Source: Enterobacter cloacae subsp. cloacae ATCC 13047 (lineage in GTDB: Bacteria; Pseudomonadota; Gammaproteobacteria; Enterobacterales; Enterobacteriaceae). Taken from it: a DNA stretch of 64,000 bases. Under the pieces are notes generated by a model. That model was not told where the DNA came from. It worked only from the letters and a program-made list of their open reading frames with translations, and made no database searches. This document shows, piece by piece, positions 11,745 through 24,192 of this stretch. The position numbers and the translations under genes were made by a program. Position 1 is the first letter of the stretch; each line of letters begins with the position of its first letter. The stretch lies in assembly GCF_000025565.1 (NCBI RefSeq), contig NC_014121.1, positions 1,922,001 to 1,986,000 on the forward strand, read 5' to 3'.

Positions 11745-14700
11745 ATGGACGTCAGCCGCAGACAATTTTTTAAAATCTGCGCGGGCGGTATGGCCGGAAC
11801 AACAGCCGCGATGCTGGGATTCGCTCCCAAAATGGCGCTGGCTCAGGCGCGCAACTATAAACTGCTGCGTGCCAAAGAGATCCGTAACACCTGCACATAC
11901 TGCTCCGTGGGTTGTGGGCTTTTAATGTATAGCCTGGGCGATGGCGCGAAGAACGCCAGAGAGGCCATTTATCATATTGAAGGGGATCCAGACCATCCGG
12001 TGAGCCGTGGGGCACTCTGCCCGAAAGGGGCGGGACTGCTGGACTACGTTCACAGCGATAACCGTCTGCGCTATCCGGAATACCGCGCGCCGGGTTCCGA
12101 CAAATGGCAGCGTATTTCCTGGGATGAAGCCTTCTCCCGGATTGCCAGACTGATGAAAGCCGACCGCGACGCCAACTTCATTGAGAAGAACGCGCAGGGC
12201 GTGACGGTGAACCGTTGGCTCTCTACCGGCATGCTGTGCGCCTCGGCGGCCAGCAATGAAACCGGCATGCTAACGCAAAAATTTGTTCGCTCCCTCGGGA
12301 TGCTGGCGGTTGATAACCAGGCGCGCGTCTGACACGGACCAACGGTAGCAAGTCTTGCTCCAACATTTGGTCGCGGTGCGATGACCAACCACTGGGTTGA
12401 TATCAAAAACGCCAACGTCGTGATGGTGATGGGTGGCAACGCCGCTGAGGCCCATCCGGTGGGGTTCCGCTGGGCGATGGAAGCGAAAAACAATAACGAT
12501 GCGACGCTTATCGTCGTCGATCCGCGCTTTACGCGTACGGCATCGGTGGCCGATATTTATGCACCGATCCGCTCCGGTACGGACATTACGTTCCTCTCGG
12601 GCGTGCTGCTCTATCTGATTGAAAACAATAAAATCAACGCGGAGTACGTAAAACACTACACCAACGCCAGCCTGCTGGTGCGGGATGATTTTGCCTTCGA
12701 TGAGGGGCTGTTCAGCGGCTATGACGCGGACAAACGTCAGTATGATAAATCGTCCTGGAACTACCAGTTCGATGAAAACGGCTATGCCAGACGCGATGAA
12801 ACCCTGAGTCATCCACGCTGCGTGTGGAACTTGCTAAAACAGCACGTTTCCCGCTATACGCCGGACGTAGTAGAAAACATCTGCGGTACGCCAAAAGCCG
12901 ACTTCCTGAAAGTGTGTGAGGTGCTGGCCTCTACCAGTGCCGCCGACAGAACCACCACGTTCCTGTACGCGCTGGGCTGGACGCAGCACACCGTTGGTGC
13001 GCAGAACATCCGTACCATGGCGATGATTCAGCTGCTGCTCGGCAATATGGGCATGGCGGGAGGCGGGGTAAATGCCTTGCGCGGTCACTCCAACATCCAG
13101 GGCTTAACCGATCTGGGTTTACTCTCGACCAGCCTGCCGGGTTACCTGACGCTGCCGTCGGAAAAACAGGCCGATCTGCAAACCTATCTCACGGCCAATA
13201 CGCCAAAAGCGACGCGTGCGGAGCAGGTGAACTACTGGAGCAACTATCCGAAGTTCTACGTCAGCCTGATGAAATCGTTTTATGGCGATGCGGCGCAGAA
13301 AGAGAACGACTGGGGCTTTGAGTGGCTGCCGAAATGGGACCAGGCCTACGACGTCATCAAGTATTTCAACATGATGGATAAGGGCAACGTCACGGGCTAT
13401 ATCTGCCAGGGCTTTAACCCGGTAGCGTCCTTCCCGGACAAAAACAAAGTGGTTCGCAGCCTGAGCAAGCTGAAGTACATGGTCGTTATCGATCCGCTGG
13501 TGACGGAAACGTCTAACTTCTGGCAGAACCACGACGAGATGAATGATGTGGATCCCGCATCAATTCAGACCGAGGTCTTCCGCTTGCCGTCTACCTGTTT
13601 TGCCGAGGAAGACGGGTCGATCGCCAACTCCGGTCGCTGGTTACAGTGGCACTGGAAGGGGCAGGATGCGCCGGGTGAAGCGCGTAATGACGGTGAAATT
13701 CTGGCCGGGATTTACCATCGCCTGCGTGAGATGTACCGCACCGAAGGTGGCAAAGGCGCTGAACCGTTGCTGAAGATGAGCTGGAACTATAAGCAACCGG
13801 ATCATCCTGAATCCGAAGAGGTGGCCAAAGAAAACAACGGCGTGGCGCTGGCCGATCTCTATGACGCCAACGGCAAACTGGTGGCGAAGAAAGGCCAGCT
13901 GCTGAACAGCTTTGCGCTCCTGCGCGATGATGGTTCCACCGCGTCGTCCTGCTGGATCTACACCGGCAGCTGGACCGAGCAGGGCAACCAGATGGCCAAT
14001 CGCGATAACGCAGACCCGTCCGGGTTGGGTAATACGCTTGGCTGGGCCTGGGCATGGCCGCTAAACCGTCGGGTGCTGTACAACCGTGCGTCGGCGGATG
14101 TCAACGGTAAACCGTGGGATCCGAAACGGATGCTGATCGCGTGGAACGGCGTGAAATGGGCGGGGAATGATATTCCTGACTTCAACACCGCGCCACCGGG
14201 CAGTGAGACCGGGCCGTTTATTATGCAGCCGGAGGGGCTGGGACGCCTGTTTGCCCTCGACAAGCTGGCAGAGGGGCCATTCCCGGAACACTACGAGCCG
14301 ATGGAAACGCCGCTCGGCACGAATCCGCTACACCCAAATGTTATCTCCAGTCCGGTCGTGCGTATCTACGCTGACGACGTGTTGCGTTTAGGCAAAAAGG
14401 ACAAATTCCCATATGTGGGAACCACCTATCGCCTGACGGAGCATTTCCACACCTGGACCAAGCACGCGCGGCTTAACGCCATCGCTCAGCCGGAACAGTT
14501 TGTGGAGATAAGCGAAACGCTGGCGAAAGCGAAAGGGATTGCCAATGGCGATCGCGTGACGGTGAGCAGCAAACGTGGCTTTATCCGTGCGGTTGCGGTG
14601 GTCACTCGTCGTCTGCAGACGTTAAACGTGAATGGTCAGCAGGTGGAAACCGTGGGTATCCCGCTGCACTGGGGCTTTGAAGGTGTGGCGCAGAAAGGCT

Positions 14701-19128: not shown

Positions 19129-20139
19129 TTACGAGCGTAAATCAATCACCATACGGCCGCGGATCTGGCCCTGTTCCATCTCTTTGAAGATGGCATTGAT
19201 ATCTTCCAGCGGGCGCATTGTCACTTTTGGCACCACTTTGCCTTCGGCAGCGAACTGGAATGCTTCCTGCAGATCCTGACGGGTACCAACCAGCGAGCCG
19301 ACCACCTGGATACCGTCCAGCACCAGACGGGGGATATCAAGGCTCATGGCTTCCGGCGGCAGGCCAACGGCCACCACGCGACCACCGGCACGCACCGCGT
19401 CCACCGCCGAGTTAAACGCTGCTTTCGCGACCGCGGTTACCACAGCCGCATGCGCGCCGCCGGTTTTTTCCTGCACGATTTTAGCGGCATCTTCGCTGCG
19501 GGAGTTGATGGTTAAATCCGCCCCCATGCTTGCAGCCAGCTTCAGCTGTTCGTCGTTAACGTCAAGGGCGATGACTTTGGCGTTGAAGACGTTTTTCGCA
19601 TACTGCAGCGCGAGGTTACCCAGTCCGCCCAGGCCGTAGATCGCAATCCACTGGCCCGGCTTGATATGGGAGACTTTTACCGCTTTGTAAGTGGTGACGC
19701 CGGCACAGGTTATGCTGCTGGCCGCAGCGGAATCCAGCCCGTCAGGCACTTTTACCGCGTAATCCGCGGTGACAATGCACTCTTCAGCCATGCCGCCATC
19801 AACGGAATAACCGGCGTTTTTCACATCGCGGCACAGGGTTTCGTTGCCGGTATTACAGTATTCACAGTGGCCGCAGCCCTCAAAGAACCACGCGACGCTT
19901 GCACGGTCGCCGACTTTCAGTGACGTCACGCCAGGCCCAACTTCTTTCACGATCCCAATCCCTTCGTGGCCCAGGATCACACCGGTTTTATCACCGAAAT
20001 CGCCATTTTTGACATGGAGGTCAGTATGGCAAACGCCACAGCACTCCATTTTGAGCAGGGCTTCGCCGTGCTTCAGTGGGCGTAAGGTTTTTTCGGTAAC
20101 ATTGACCTGATGATCCTGTGTAACAACAGCAGCCTTCAT
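19129..20139 (-). CDS. adhP: Propanol-preferring zinc alcohol dehydrogenase AdhP
   Basis: Cytoplasmic zinc-dependent, NAD-linked alcohol dehydrogenase interconverting ethanol or propanol and the aldehydes. The start [10 protein letters not shown] at 20139 gives 336 residues, as in E. coli, with AAGGAG at the right distance; a longer frame to 20175 lacks support. Catalytic zinc ligands appear in [10 protein letters not shown] and GHEGIG. The structural zinc lobe has four cysteines in [15 protein letters not shown]. The Rossmann nucleotide-binding loop is [14 protein letters not shown]. It stands alone as in E. coli, except that an ABC-F gene is placed between it and maeA. Confidence 0.95.
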
Positions 20140-20305
20140 AGGTTTCTCCTTGTTTTTGATGGGTATGTGTATCACAGGGGAATACTACTTAAGGATTAAT
20201 AGTTTAGAAGCGTTATGCAAGGCGGCGGCAACATAATGTCACCAATTGATGCGATTTCAGATTAAGAATACAGCGATCCTCTAATAATTAGGGGGGAATT
20301 CACTG

Positions 20306-20334: not shown

Positions 20335-22044
20335 CTACAGTTTTGCTTCTATCACCTCAATCTCTTTGCGCCATTGCACCTGCAGATGTGGTTTCTGATG
20401 CTTAGGCTTACGCGCCAGGTCTTCTGCCAGTAGCGTTTCCAGTGCGATCAGCCTTTCAAGCAGATCGTCCGAGGCTTGCGCTTTAACATCCGCGACTGCG
20501 GGTGACGCCGACGACGCCATCAGGCTTGTGCGTTCACGCAGCCGTTCGAACACCGCTTCGGCGTCATGCCATTCGCTAAGCAAACCGTCCTCAATCAGCC
20601 AGAAGCGATTGCAGCTTTGGGCGATCAGCTGCCGGTCATGGCTGACCAGCAGCACTCCGCCGTCAAACTGTTGCAGGGTAGTGGCCAGCGCCTCTTTGCC
20701 TTCCATGTCCAGGTGGTTGGTAGGCTCATCCAGCATCAGCAGGCTATAACGGGCAAGCGTCAGGCCGACAAACAGCAGGCGCGAACGCTCCCCGCCGCTG
20801 AGGGTGCTGACCTTTTGCCCGTGACGCGCCCACGGGAACCCGGCGCTGATAAGCGCCATCTTGCGATCCTGTGGCGCTGGCGCAAAAGGCTCCAGCGCGT
20901 CGAAGATCGTTGCCTCATCCGGAAGCTGATTCAGCGTCTGGTCGTAATAGCCTGGCGACACGCGAGGATGGAGTTTTAGCCCAGCCTCTGACGGTTCACC
21001 TGAGAAATGCCGCCAGATGAGCTTCATCAGCGATGATTTGCCGCAGCCGTTACGCCCGACGATAGCCACGCGATCGCCACTTTTAAGCCGCGCAATGTCG
21101 ACGTGAAATAGATCGGGCAACCCAGGTGCAGGCGGTACGCCGAGGTTTTCCATCTCCAGCAGTCGGTCCGCCCGCAGGGCATCACCACGCAGGGTTAACG
21201 TCCACGGACTGCCTGCCGTGAGCTCTGTCTGGTTCTCCTTTAGCCGCTCGACCTGTTTTTCCATCTGTTTGGCTTTGCGGGCCAGATCTTCGTTATCGTA
21301 GACCTTGCCCCAGGTGGCCAGCCGTCTGGCACTGGCGGTTACGCGGTCGATCTCCTTTTGCTCCGCCTTATGCCGCAGCGCATCGCTTTCGTCTTTCGCC
21401 ACCAGCGCCTGGCGCGCGGTGGTGCAGGGAAGGGCGAAGTAGTGCAACATCTTATCGCGCAGGATCCAGCTGCCGTTGGTGACGGCATCCAGCAACTGCC
21501 TGTCGTGCGAGACCAGTACAAAGCTGCCGGACCAGTTCTGTAAAAACTGCTCCAGCCAGAGCATGGTAGGCAAATCGAGGTGGTTGCTCGGCTCGTCCAG
21601 CAGTAACAGGTCCGGCTCGCCGATCAACGCCCGCGCGAGCAGGAGACGCGTGTGTTGCCCGCCGCTCAGCGTCGCCGACGTTAAGGCCATGTCCTGCGGC
21701 GTAAAGCCCATACCCGCCAGCAGCGTTTCAGCTTTCCAGCGCAGGCTCTCGCGCTCAGTCGTGGGCAGTTGCGCCAGCACGGCATCCAGCATGGTCAGGG
21801 GATAAATGGCTTCTGGCAGATGTTGCTCAACGCGCGCCATCAGACAGTGTCCTGCCAGCGCGACGCTTCCGGCAGCGGGAGAGTCTGTGCCGTCCAGCAC
21901 CTTCAGCAGCGTACTTTTGCCGCAGCCGTTGTCGCCCAGCAGGCCAATGCGGTCGCCTTTTTTCAGCGTAAAGGAGAGGGAGTCGAAGAGCGTGCCAAAC
22001 GCCGTATCAACACGTAAAGATTGTGCAGTGAGTAAAGTGCTCAT
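20335..22044 (-). CDS. ABC-F family ATPase (putative ribosome-associated, leader-controlled)
   Basis: Soluble tandem-ATPase protein of the ABC-F class, 569 residues, without membrane segments. Domain 1 has Walker A GDNGCGKST (37-45), signature LSGGQ near 128, and Walker B LLLLDEPSNHLD. Domain 2 has GRNGCGKSS, LSGGERSRL and LLMLDEPTNHLD. Both catalytic Glu residues are present. A charged helical linker (about 215-290, with ARKAKQMEKQVERLKE) joins them, as needed to reach the ribosomal E/P-site, and a basic helical tail follows. ABC-F proteins act on ribosomes as translation factors (EttA, Uup, YheS, YbiT) or antibiotic-resistance factors. This one is none of the four E. coli paralogues by length and context. 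The 5' leader (22045-22279) suggests translation-sensing induction. Confidence 0.85.
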   Translation of the reverse strand: MSTLLTAQSLRVDTAFGTLFDSLSFTLKKGDRIGLLGDNGCGKSTLLKVLDGTDSPAAGSVALAGHCLMARVEQHLPEAIYPLTMLDAVLAQLPTTERESLRWKAETLLAGMGFTPQDMALTSATLSGGQHTRLLLARALIGEPDLLLLDEPSNHLDLPTMLWLEQFLQNWSGSFVLVSHDRQLLDAVTNGSWILRDKMLHYFALPCTTARQALVAKDESDALRHKAEQKEIDRVTASARRLATWGKVYDNEDLARKAKQMEKQVERLKENQTELTAGSPWTLTLRGDALRADRLLEMENLGVPPAPGLPDLFHVDIARLKSGDRVAIVGRNGCGKSSLMKLIWRHFSGEPSEAGLKLHPRVSPGYYDQTLNQLPDEATIFDALEPFAPAPQDRKMALISAGFPWARHGQKVSTLSGGERSRLLFVGLTLARYSLLMLDEPTNHLDMEGKEALATTLQQFDGGVLLVSHDRQLIAQSCNRFWLIEDGLLSEWHDAEAVFERLRERTSLMASSASPAVADVKAQASDDLLERLIALETLLAEDLARKPKHQKPHLQVQWRKEIEVIEAKL

Positions 22045-22279
22045 TGTTGCTTACCCAAGAGTTACAGGCATGTTTATGCCTCGTCAAACATCGCTGACGA
22101 TAACTCAGTAAGCCCGAGAGAAGGGATTTCAGGGGTTGGTGTCTTCGCTCAAGCAGAAGTTATCGCAGCACGATACCGATAACGCTTGAGCTGGTGCGAT
22201 CACCAAATGCATGTGAAACATTGAAAATTTCACAGTACAGCATAATTGGCCTCCTTATATATTCAGTGGGTTAATGGAT
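22045..22279 (-). promoter_or_regulatory. Leader RNA with mutually exclusive helices controlling the ABC-F gene
   Basis: About 235 nt of leader. Segments in plus coordinates: 1 = 22177-22190, 2 = about 22151-22172, 3 = 22093-22106, 4 = 22059-22064. Helix 1:2 pairs GTTATCG (leader codons 21-23) with CGATAAC at the leader stop, and CTCAAGC with GCTTGAG, so 14 pairs with a 4-nt bulge. Helix 2:3 pairs GCUGCGAUAACUU with GAGUUAUCG-U-CAGC, so 13 pairs with one bulged U. Helix 3:4 pairs GAGUUA with UAACUC and encloses two small hairpins, just before the weak ABC-F ribosome site. 1:2 and 3:4 exclude 2:3. The pairing is seen in sequence; the switching role is inferred. Confidence 0.6.
22160..22243 (-). 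CDS. 27-residue leader peptide upstream of the ABC-F gene
   Basis: A short ORF starting MLYCEIFN and ending IGIVLR-stop, headed by AAGGAGG six bases before its ATG. This is a far better ribosome site than that of the ABC-F gene itself. Its last third lies in the first arm of a long hairpin, and its stop codon lies in the second arm, so ribosome position on it would decide which RNA helices form. It ends 115 nt before the ABC-F ATG. The composition is hydrophobic with Cys, Tyr and a Ser-Ser-Ser run. It is likely a stalling sensor peptide, not a stable protein. I do not recognise it as a known leader. Confidence 0.65.
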   Translation of the reverse strand: MLYCEIFNVSHAFGDRTSSSVIGIVLR

Positions 22280-22285
22280 GAAAGG

Positions 22286-22314
22286 AGTGTAGCGGGGGAA
22301 AGGCGGTTTGGCTA
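22286..22314 (-). promoter_or_regulatory. Candidate promoter of the leader/ABC-F transcript
   Basis: On the minus strand TAGCCA (22314-22309) and TACACT (22291-22286) are 17 bp apart. Each matches 4 of 6 consensus bases. Transcription would start near 22279, about 36 nt before the leader peptide ATG. Confidence 0.4.
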
Positions 22315-22329
22315 GGGGGGCGAATGTAA

Positions 22330-22354
22330 TTCCCTCTCCCACAGGGAGAGGGAA
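22330..22354 (-). terminator. Hairpin downstream of maeA
   Basis: Perfect 11-bp stem TTCCCTCTCCC / GGGAGAGGGAA with loop ACA, 16 bases past the maeA stop. On the minus strand it is followed by TTACATT, so it is a plausible terminator that would separate maeA from the ABC-F leader. Confidence 0.65.
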
Positions 22355-22370
22355 CGGTCGGAACACAGTG

Positions 22371-24068
22371 TTAGATCGAAGTACGACGGTAGCTGCGGTA
22401 TTCCGGCATCCAGAAGTTGTCGTCGATGGCCTGCTGCAGCGCGTCAGCAGAGGTTTTCACTGCCACACCCTGCTGCTGGGCCATTTTCCCGACCGCGAAC
22501 GCAATTGCACGCGACACCTTGTGAATGTCTTTCAACTCTGGCAGCACCAGTCCTTCGCCATCGTTCACCAGCGGCGAGTGGCCCGCCAGGGTTTCGCTTG
22601 CCGACATCAGCATCTCATCGGTAATGCGCGACGCGCCGGAGGCGATCACACCCAGACCAATGCCCGGGAAAATATAGGAGTTGTTGCACTGGGCAATAGG
22701 ATAGGTTTTGTCCTTCCACACCACCGGATCGAACGGGCTGCCGGTTGCGACCAGCGCGTTCCCTTCGGTCCAGGCAATGATGTCCTGCGGCGTTGCTTCC
22801 ACGCGCGAGGTCGGGTTGGAGAGCGGCATCACGATAGGGCGTTCGCAGTGCTTGTGCATCTCACGAATGATCTCTTCGGTAAACAGCCCCGTCTGACCGG
22901 AGACGCCAATCAGGATATCCGGCTTCACGTTGCGCACTACGTCCAGCAGAGAGAGCACTTCGTTGTCGGTGTCCCAGTTCTTCAGATTCTCACGTTTCTG
23001 CACCAGCTTGGTCTGGAACGGCAGCAGGTTTGGCATGCCGTCGGTCAGCAGGCCGAAACGGTCGACCATGAACACGCGGGAGCGCGCCAGCTCTTCGCTT
23101 AGCCCTTCACGCTGCGTCTGGGCGATAATCTGCTCGGCGATACCACAACCCGCAGAGCCTGCGCCCAGGAAGACAATTTTCTGATAGCTCAGTTGGCTGC
23201 CTGCCGCGCGACTGGCGGCAATCAGCGTGCCGACGGTGACCGCGGCGGTGCCCTGAATGTCGTCGTTAAAAGAGCAGATCTCATCGCGATATCGGTTCAG
23301 CAACGGCATCGCGTTTTTCTGCGCGAAGTCTTCAAACTGCAGCAGCACGTCCGGCCAGCGATGCTTGACCGCCTGGATGAAATCATCAACAAACTGATAA
23401 TACTCGTCGTCGGTAATACGCGGATGACGCCAGCCCATATACAGCGGGTCGTTAAGCAACTGCTGGTTGTTGGTGCCCACATCCAGCACCACCGGCAGGG
23501 TATACGCCGGGCTGATGCCGCCGCAGGCGGTATACAGAGAGAGCTTACCGATTGGGATCCCCATGCCGCCAATACCCTGGTCTCCGAGACCCAGAATACG
23601 TTCGCCATCGGTCACCACGATCACTTTGATATTGTGGTTCGGCACGTTCTGCAGAATATCGTCCATGTTGTGGCGGTTCTGATAAGAGATAAAGACGCCA
23701 CGGGAGCGACGGTAGATCTCTGAGAAGCGTTCACAGGCGGCACCCACCGTTGGGGTGTAGATCACCGGCATCATCTCTTCGAGATGATTTTGTACCAGAC
23801 GATAGAAGAGGGTTTCGTTGGTATCCTGAATGTTGCGCAGGTAAATATGTTTGTCGATTTCGGTTTTGAAACCCTGATACTGGATCCACGCGCGCTCTGC
23901 CTGTTCTTCAATGGTTTCCACCACTTCTGGCAGCAAACCGAGCAGGTTGAAGCTGCTGCGCTCTTCCATGCTGAAGGCGCTACCTTTGTTGAGCAGGGGG
24001 AATTCGAGTAATACCGGGCCGGCATAAGGGATATATAGGGAACGATGTTTTTTCAGTTTGTTGTCCAT
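22371..24068 (-). CDS. maeA: NAD-dependent malic enzyme MaeA
   Basis: Oxidative decarboxylation of malate to pyruvate with NAD, a cytoplasmic anaplerotic/gluconeogenic enzyme. The ATG at 24068 gives 565 residues, the E. coli length, beginning [24 protein letters not shown] three codons upstream is the alternative. Visible motifs: catalytic Tyr in [27 protein letters not shown] (site I), the Lys/Asp region [12 protein letters not shown] and [11 protein letters not shown] (metal and catalytic), and NAD-binding [12 protein letters not shown]. It lies upstream of the ABC-F gene and downstream of sra, as in the E. coli adhP-maeA-sra order apart from the inserted ABC-F gene. Confidence 0.96.
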
Positions 24069-24192
24069 GTCACTCACTCTTTTTTTGAAGATCCGTCCCT
24101 GACACTGCTGTTTGTCATCTTTCTGGCCTGTGCGATGGGGTGCGGTCAGGCGGTATTATAAAGGAGCTAAATATTAATTACCGCAACACATA

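What the first reader, a model, noticed from the sequence alone, without database searches (positions are those of the whole stretch)
22160..22243. Undescribed 27-codon leader peptide before an ABC-F ribosome-factor gene
Directly seen: an ORF starting MLYCEIFN and ending GIVLR-stop with a near-perfect AAGGAGG site, placed 115 nt before an ABC-F start that itself has only a weak site (UAAG). Known: several ABC-F resistance genes (e.g. vmlR, lmo0919-type) are controlled by short translated uORFs that sense stalled ribosomes. Inference: this peptide senses a ribosome-targeting drug or stress and induces the ABC-F protein. I do not recall this leader from any described system in enterobacteria.
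Basis: partly seen in the sequence, partly recalled or inferred. Interest (0 to 1): 0.8.

Follow-up and report, generated by a model that had tools for sequence, protein, structure and literature searches.

The report
Conserved leader-peptide switch before ABC-F gene
A 27-codon mini-gene and the RNA around it look like an ancient on/off switch, shared by Enterobacter, Klebsiella, Serratia, Vibrio, Aeromonas and relatives, that would turn on a ribosome-binding ABC-F protein when ribosomes stall on the mini-gene; the signal (perhaps an antibiotic) is still unknown.

Summary
Upstream of this ABC-F gene, 137 of 140 distinct leaders (genus and family genomes plus 4 named records) have exactly 27 codons, nearly all with a strong SD; 79 of 80 named loci have 26-28, as do 18 of 20 orthologues sampled outside the family and named Vibrio and Aeromonas records. 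Four RNA segments form mutually exclusive helices 1:2, 2:3 and 3:4; segment 4 holds the weak ABC-F ribosome site. Pairing is kept in 94-95% of cells against 24-53% when slid. Modelled ribosomes at the leader's end give 3:4 (site hidden); at codons 14-21 they cover segment 1 and leave 2:3. A model trained inside the family finds 20 of 20 outside elements and none of 5 negatives.

Best reading: an undescribed translational attenuator, ermC/cat-86-like in logic. Peptide selection is real but modest. Equilibrium folding alone does not separate early stalls from codons 14-21. Drug sensing, and whether this ABC-F gives resistance, are untested. My searches of an open-licence library found no description.

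The parts
22309..22314 (-). putative -35 (TAGCCA), 17 nt from the -10
   Evidence: read; with the -10, 8 of 12 consensus letters, so below the threshold of the scan, which found none; inference
22286..22291 (-). putative -10 (TACACT; TATACT, TATAGT or TATAAT in some relatives)
   Evidence: conserved position in the upstream alignment (25 of 126 rows printed); inference
22250..22256 (-). leader Shine-Dalgarno AAGGAGG
   Evidence: SD match of 7-8 letters in 137 of the 141 distinct sequences (the 141 include the non-leader L151)
22160..22243 (-). 27-codon leader ORF
22212..22234 (-). hairpin 0 inside the leader (TGTGAAA / TTTCACA)
   Evidence: I8; 4 of 139 sequences change one G-C pair to A-U, 3 break it
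22196..22207 (-). codons 13-16 (F G D R): peptide core, where a ribosome begins to cover segment 1
22177..22191 (-). segment 1 (GCTCAAGC GTTATCG)
22143..22165 (-). segment 2 (CGATAACTTCTGCTTGAGCGAAG); overlaps the leader stop codon; pairs with segment 1 or segment 3
22098..22123 (-). segment 3 (CTTCTCTCGGGCTTACTGAGTTATCG); pairs with segment 2 or segment 4
22082..22099 (-). hairpin x (CGTCA / TGACG)
22066..22081 (-). hairpin y (AGGCAT / ATGCCT)
   Evidence: change on both sides in 6, 34 and 15 of 139 sequences at three pairs
22049..22064 (-). segment 4 (TAACTCTTGGGTAAGC); contains the weak ABC-F ribosome site
20335..22044 (-). ABC-F ATPase gene (569 aa)

Best explanation
A translational attenuator. 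Its own promoter (inferred) starts the mRNA just before the leader. Without a ribosome in the leader, segment 1 pairs with segment 2 as soon as both are made, leaving segment 3 to pair with segment 4 and hide the ABC-F ribosome site (OFF). A ribosome that finishes the leader sits on the start of segment 2 and also leaves 3:4 in place (OFF). A ribosome held with its P site at about codons 14-21 covers segment 1 but not segment 2, so segment 2 captures segment 3 and segment 4 is released (ON). Shown by comparison or computation: the ORF, the segments, the mutually exclusive helices, the OFF state of finishing ribosomes, and that 1:2 is lost once the P site reaches codon 14. Inferred: the promoter, the order of folding in the cell (on which OFF without a ribosome depends), and the signal, most likely a drug that stalls elongation (helped by the F/L-G-D/N-R stretch or the Ser-rich codons 18-20), with the ABC-F clearing or protecting such ribosomes.
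For: ORF: 137 of 140 distinct leaders have 27 codons; 79 of 80 named loci and 18 of 20 sampled orthologues outside the family have 26-28. 112 of 115 family genomes with the ABC-F have a leader, one of them frame-shifted; the 3 without carry 41-46% identical proteins. Pairing: 93.9% (1:2), 95.1% (2:3), 95.1% (3:4 with hairpins x and y) of cells, against 24-53% for slid partners; cells changed on both sides 31, 4 and 66. Ribosome occlusion, 135 sequences: P site 14-20 gives outer 2:3 helix 0.78-0.92 and the outer 3:4 helix 0.03-0.13; 1:2 outer stem falls from 0.21 at codon 13 to 0.04 at 14; P site 26-28 gives outer 3:4 0.70-0.84 and outer 2:3 0.00. Nascent RNA cut before segment 3: 1:2 outer stem mean 0.99, above 0.5 in 139 of 139. 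Outside the family the ABC-F start is freer in the ON than the OFF window in 18 of 18, mean difference 0.116 against -0.004 for shuffles. Model R1 finds 20 of 20 outside elements, none of 5 negatives, and one element in each of 34 of 159 family genomes. Frame-0 synonymous excess 144 against 109.1 (sd 8.2), none in frames +1 and +2.
Against: No expression, toeprint or drug data. At equilibrium the free RNA prefers 2:3 (0.57) over 3:4 (0.27), and P sites 1-13 already give 2:3 0.63-0.75 and 3:4 0.13-0.22, so the folding alone shows an upper edge (about codon 22) but not a lower edge of the inducing window; the lower edge rests on 1:2 forming first. Part of 2:3 (the inner helix) persists at P site 23-26 (0.65-0.48). 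Peptide selection is weak beside the ABC-F (506 synonymous changes seen, 254.5 expected); codons 9, 13 and 15 show no synonymous excess, and the C-terminus can be explained by RNA pairing. 2:3 has only 4 double-change cells because segment 2 hardly varies. Five of six loci of one unnamed family (f21: L253-L257) show ON-OFF differences of only 0.01-0.04 (the sixth, L260, 0.37), and in 10 of the 18 outside loci at least 1 of 20 shuffles equalled the observed difference. Confidence lowered from 0.72 to 0.70 when this check showed the missing lower edge.
Confidence: 0.7

Rival explanations
1. General translation-stress sensor or autoregulatory loop: any slow or absent leader translation, or lack of the ABC-F itself, opens segment 4; the ABC-F relieves pausing on its own leader, so the circuit is feedback rather than drug detection.
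For: Free RNA and a ribosome at codon 1 already favour 2:3 at equilibrium (0.57 and 0.63). ToiL in E. coli answers several drug classes, and EttA acts on leader MgtL (passages of PMC12121999 and PMC11282234).
Against: Nascent RNA forms 1:2 first in the model. Synonymous excess at codons 7, 14 and 16 suggests a particular arrest site.
Confidence: 0.3
2. Rho-linked transcription attenuation: leader stalling controls Rho loading in the C-rich gap rather than, or as well as, the ABC-F ribosome site.
For: C-rich stretch between leader stop and segment 3; ToiL combines both layers (passages).
Against: The 3:4 helix covers the ribosome site directly. The middle of the gap is variable and takes an insertion in L119. 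Not tested further here.
Confidence: 0.25
3. Untranslated RNA element (riboswitch, thermosensor); the ORF is an accident.
For: Most of the conservation is RNA pairing; hairpin 0 keeps a pair in 4 sequences while two amino acids change.
Against: 26-28 codons, SD, ATG and stop kept inside and outside the family; frame-specific synonymous excess; no Rfam family at gathering score.
Confidence: 0.04
4. Amino-acid-starvation attenuator, or a small protein acting in trans.
For: Short conserved ORF.
Against: No run of one regulatory codon apart from Ser/Cys codons inside segment 1; residues 3, 6, 8, 9, 12 and 17 vary freely.
Confidence: 0.03

Closest known systems
vmlR leader of Bacillus subtilis (PMC9226507, passages read)
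   Same: uORF in front of an ABC-F gene; stalling changes mutually exclusive hairpins, including one that hides the ABC-F SD.
   Different: vmlR has a 3-codon uORF, an intrinsic terminator and RNA polymerase pausing; here 27 codons, no terminator found in the scan, gammaproteobacteria.
MsrDL of msrD (PMC10314930, passages read)
   Same: Leader peptide controlling an ABC-F gene.
   Different: MYLIFM stalls at its stop codon and acts through an intrinsic terminator; here a ribosome at the stop codon is predicted to keep the gene off.
ToiL-TopAI of E. coli (PMC12121999, passages read)
   Same: Enterobacterial uORF, translational repression of the next gene, relieved by ribosome-targeting drugs.
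   Different: Controls a toxin-antitoxin pair; its sequence was not compared here.
ermC and cat-86 translational attenuators (recalled, no call)
   Same: 1:2 / 2:3 / 3:4 logic with a hidden SD.
   Different: Downstream gene, leader peptide and hosts differ.

Membership tests
translational attenuator (ermC/cat-86 type, definition recalled) | leader ORF with its own SD, under coding selection | tested here: met
   translation itself not measured
translational attenuator (ermC/cat-86 type, definition recalled) | mutually exclusive helices, one hiding the downstream SD | tested here: met
   by comparison and computation only
translational attenuator (ermC/cat-86 type, definition recalled) | induction by drug-dependent ribosome stalling | not testable with these tools
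   needs reporter or toeprint
transcription attenuator with intrinsic terminator (msrD, vmlR type) | intrinsic terminator in the leader | tested here: not met
   0 found on either strand of window 21950-22450 (shuffles 0.3); pattern scan of the window only, relatives not scanned
ABC-F protein | two ABC domains with linker, fold of solved ABC-Fs | tested here: met
named antibiotic-resistance ABC-F families (Msr, Vga, Lsa, Sal, OptrA, CplR and others shown) | curated NCBIfam cut-off | tested here: not met
   all those shown are below; general model NF000355 312.8 against 380
named antibiotic-resistance ABC-F families | confers resistance | not testable with these tools
   no phenotype data
housekeeping EttA, Uup, YheS, YbiT | curated NCBIfam cut-off (the models named only by number are matched to YheS and YbiT by recall) | tested here: not met
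amino-acid attenuator | run of regulatory codons | tested here: not met
   the Ser/Cys codons 18-20 lie in segment 1 and are explained by pairing
known Rfam element | gathering score | tested here: not met
   only SECIS_3, elsewhere in the window

The most novel reading that the evidence does not exclude
An ancient gammaproteobacterial resistance-type circuit: a peptide-specific arrest (core x-F-G) that senses a natural ribosome inhibitor and induces an uncharacterised ABC-F protector, carried in the genomes of many Enterobacterales, of Vibrio and of Aeromonas, and overlooked because E. coli lacks it.
Probability: 0.45. Interest if true: 0.87.

Novelty: new member of a known kind. Interest (0 to 1): 0.74.

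Why it matters
Leader-induced ABC-F protection is known to me (recall) from Gram-positive bacteria, antibiotic producers and mobile genes. A conserved leader-controlled ABC-F in Klebsiella, Enterobacter, Citrobacter, Serratia, Vibrio and Aeromonas would be an unseen layer of response to ribosome inhibitors, and the leader can be used directly as a reporter to find the inducing compound. E. coli genomes gave no DNA match to it, which may be why it was missed.

Tried and rejected
Rfam, the promoter and terminator scan and PADLOC gave nothing specific. RNAalifold on the whole alignment gives only the outer 1:2 stem, hairpin y, hairpin 0 and a leader-SD pairing, because one consensus cannot show two alternative folds; the alternatives were tested one by one. 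An unpaired-probability measure of the ABC-F start moved only from 0.38 to about 0.52; helix probabilities show the switch more clearly. A CRP site in TGTGA...TCACA was rejected (13-nt spacer; consensus recalled). A drug class could not be chosen: the Asp-Arg stretch recalls ErmBL (Asp codon 10, abstract seen; Lys after it recalled), and the Ser-rich codons recall the Ala/Ser/Thr context of chloramphenicol (passage in PMC12121999). The class-level search found the ABC-F at E <= 1e-110 in the window's own genome and in none of the 320 others. The structure search does not separate resistance from housekeeping ABC-Fs (VmlR2, PoxtA, YbiT and YheS all near the top).

Rows dropped: L151 (no leader) from all leader counts. 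L119 (insertion) from alignment A1; L037's ABC-F start was mis-set and corrected for A1. L151, L068, L119, L037 and the two 28-codon leaders left out of the folding set (135 of 141). One search used the 137 leaders of 27 codons. One search used 125: those 137 without L119 and without 11 loci with short ABC-F sequence. One search used 23 of the 135 family sequences, 20 shuffles each. Five of 25 outside-family genomes with the ABC-F (all f25) were not fetched. print capped lists; counts are from their tally lines and genome tables.

Full report
WHAT IS THERE. On the minus strand maeA (22371-24077) is followed by the leader ORF (22160-22243), the ABC-F gene (20335-22044) and adhP (19129-20175). 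A promoter-like TAGCCA-17 nt-TACACT lies just upstream; its -10 position is conserved in relatives, but it is below the threshold of the scan, so the leader's own promoter is an inference.

CONSERVATION OF THE ORF. The ABC-F has an orthologue in 34 of 36 genomes of the genus (79-100% identity); the other 24 genomes of that call match only at paralogue level, best E 1.9e-58. The leader DNA matches 102 of 392 family genomes, in 35 of 154 genera; the ABC-F at E <= 1e-120 is in 115 of 392. Of those 115, 101 have the DNA match, and each has a leader ORF, one frame-shifted. Of the 14 without a DNA match, 11 carry a 27-codon leader and 3, with proteins 41-46% identical, do not. So 112 of 115. Of the 137 loci first fetched (some show the same place twice), 136 have the ABC-F start downstream; the exception, L133, is a truncated second copy. 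Of 140 distinct leaders 137 have 27 codons, 2 have 28, and 1 (L068, the same peptide as named Phytobacter massiliensis L180) reads 35 after losing a base. Of 80 named loci (Klebsiella, Raoultella, Citrobacter, Kosakonia, Serratia, Yersinia, Rahnella, Ewingella, Hafnia, Morganella, Erwinia and others) 79 have a 26-28-codon leader; 35 of 80 show neither maeA nor adhP within the flanks fetched (2.5 kb, shorter in a few), so the leader goes with the ABC-F rather than with the neighbourhood.

OUTSIDE THE FAMILY. Of 345 genomes sampled in the order, 41 have the ABC-F at E <= 1e-110, 25 of them outside the family. I read upstream of 20 of the 25: 18 have a leader, ten of 26 and eight of 28 codons, e.g. 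MSLWCSINPRLFGMKARSRVIDIALR and MVIQACPMFSARLFGTFECSCLHTIALR; the two without have proteins 38-39% identical to the query. A named Vibrio (MTKCELHFARFFSNHASSSFTGIVLR) and Aeromonas caviae (MVIQACPMFSARLFGTFKCSCLHTIALR) have it too. In these 20 an aromatic residue sits 14 residues before the end, as F13 does in the window; inside the family that position is F 89, L 39, Y 7, I 2 of 137. blastn found no match in 5,426 E. coli genomes for leader or ABC-F DNA.

RNA SWITCH. Segment 1 (22177-22191) pairs with segment 2 (22143-22165), segment 2 with segment 3 (22098-22123), segment 3 with segment 4 (22049-22064), and segment 4 carries the weak ABC-F ribosome site. On 139 aligned sequences standard pairs fill 93.9%, 95.1% and 95.1% of cells (the third with hairpins x and y), against 24-53% with partners slid by 1-3 columns; cells changed on both sides number 31, 4 and 66. 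For 2:3 the covariation score does not stand out from shuffles (65 of 500 reach it), because segment 2 hardly varies; its support is retained pairing. In a more diverse 24-sequence subset 2:3 with hairpin y gives 14 double-change cells, 6 of them in 2:3, none of 500 shuffles reaching 14. A covariance model from those 24 finds 18 of 18 outside-family loci plus Vibrio and Aeromonas and none of 5 negatives (one weak antisense match lies inside the Vibrio locus), one strong site in the window, and one site in each of 34 of 159 family genomes, under Infernal's stricter filters.

HOW IT WORKS. With the RNA under a ribosome and upstream of it removed, 135 sequences were folded for each P-site codon. 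P site 14-20: outer 2:3 helix 0.78-0.92, outer 3:4 helix 0.03-0.13. P site 21-25 is a transition (outer 2:3 falls from 0.67 to 0.00; inner 2:3 stays at 0.64-0.78; outer 3:4 rises from 0.12 to 0.49). P site 26-28: outer 2:3 0.00, inner 2:3 0.48, 0.09 and 0.06, outer 3:4 0.84, 0.70 and 0.74, inner 3:4 0.47-0.54. So a ribosome that completes the leader turns the gene off. P sites 1-13 also favour 2:3 (0.63-0.75), as does free RNA (0.57 against 3:4 0.27): equilibrium folding gives no lower edge to the inducing window. That edge comes from 1:2: RNA cut before segment 3 forms the 1:2 outer stem with mean probability 0.99, above 0.5 in 139 of 139, and a ribosome removes it only once its P site reaches codon 14 (0.21 at 13, 0.04 at 14). 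With the named helices alone, 1:2 plus 3:4 is on average 7.8 kcal/mol better than 2:3 plus hairpin y. Outside the family the ABC-F start is freer in the ON than the OFF window in 18 of 18, mean difference 0.116 against -0.004 in shuffles; in 8 of 18 none of 20 shuffles equalled it; L253-L257 show only 0.01-0.04; in the family sample 22 of 23 are positive.

PEPTIDE OR RNA? Both, mainly RNA. Codons 18-28 overlap segments 1 and 2, and codons 4-5 and 10-11 hairpin 0, where 4 related sequences keep a pair while Glu5 becomes Lys and Ser10 Leu. In codons 2-16 synonymous changes exceed expectation only in frame 0 (144 against 109.1, sd 8.2; frame +1 110 against 104.3; frame +2 86 against 96.3), clearest at codons 3, 7, 12, 14 and 16; codons 9, 13 and 15 show fewer than expected. 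Codons 14-16 lie where a ribosome starts to cover segment 1. This fits an arrest site there but does not prove one; D15 and R16 are not kept outside the family.

THE ABC-F. Two ABC domains and an ABC-F fold; model pLDDT 85.6. It reaches the cut-off of none of the 25 best NCBIfam families shown, resistance or housekeeping. Nearest folds mix resistance (VmlR2, PoxtA) and housekeeping (YbiT, YheS, EttA) proteins. Calling it a resistance gene would go beyond the evidence.

KNOWN OR NEW. Searches for ABC-F leaders in enterobacteria, Klebsiella, Vibrio and Aeromonas, and for the peptide letters, found no description (open-licence library only, listings read). Papers seen in passages: ToiL, MsrDL, vmlR, EttA. 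[quoted passage not shown] The present element is a new member of the leader-peptide attenuator kind, without a terminator in the scan and in gammaproteobacteria.

Noticed in passing
window 12327-12385 (+): Rfam SECIS_3 match (84.3 bits, gathering score 63), presumably in a selenocysteine formate dehydrogenase gene.
   Followed up: no
L198 about 940-1010 (Citrobacter sp. Awk 4): A second, truncated copy of the promoter and leader start followed by unrelated DNA, about 1.5 kb upstream of the intact leader.
   Followed up: partly
L119 (G373): About 45 extra nt in the loop between segments 2 and 3; the leader stays at 27 codons.
   Followed up: partly
L068 / L180 (Phytobacter massiliensis): The only frame-shifted leader seen (35 codons), with the RNA segments present.
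   Followed up: no
window 22250-22254 with the CTTCYC part of segment 3: RNAalifold pairs the leader SD with segment 3; possible extra control of leader translation.
   Followed up: no
window 22330-22354: Perfect 11-bp inverted repeat between the maeA stop and the leader, without a T run; perhaps the maeA terminator.
   Followed up: no
G307:C15:34396-36108 and G394:C115: ABC-F orthologues with an internal stop or split in two pieces.
   Followed up: no
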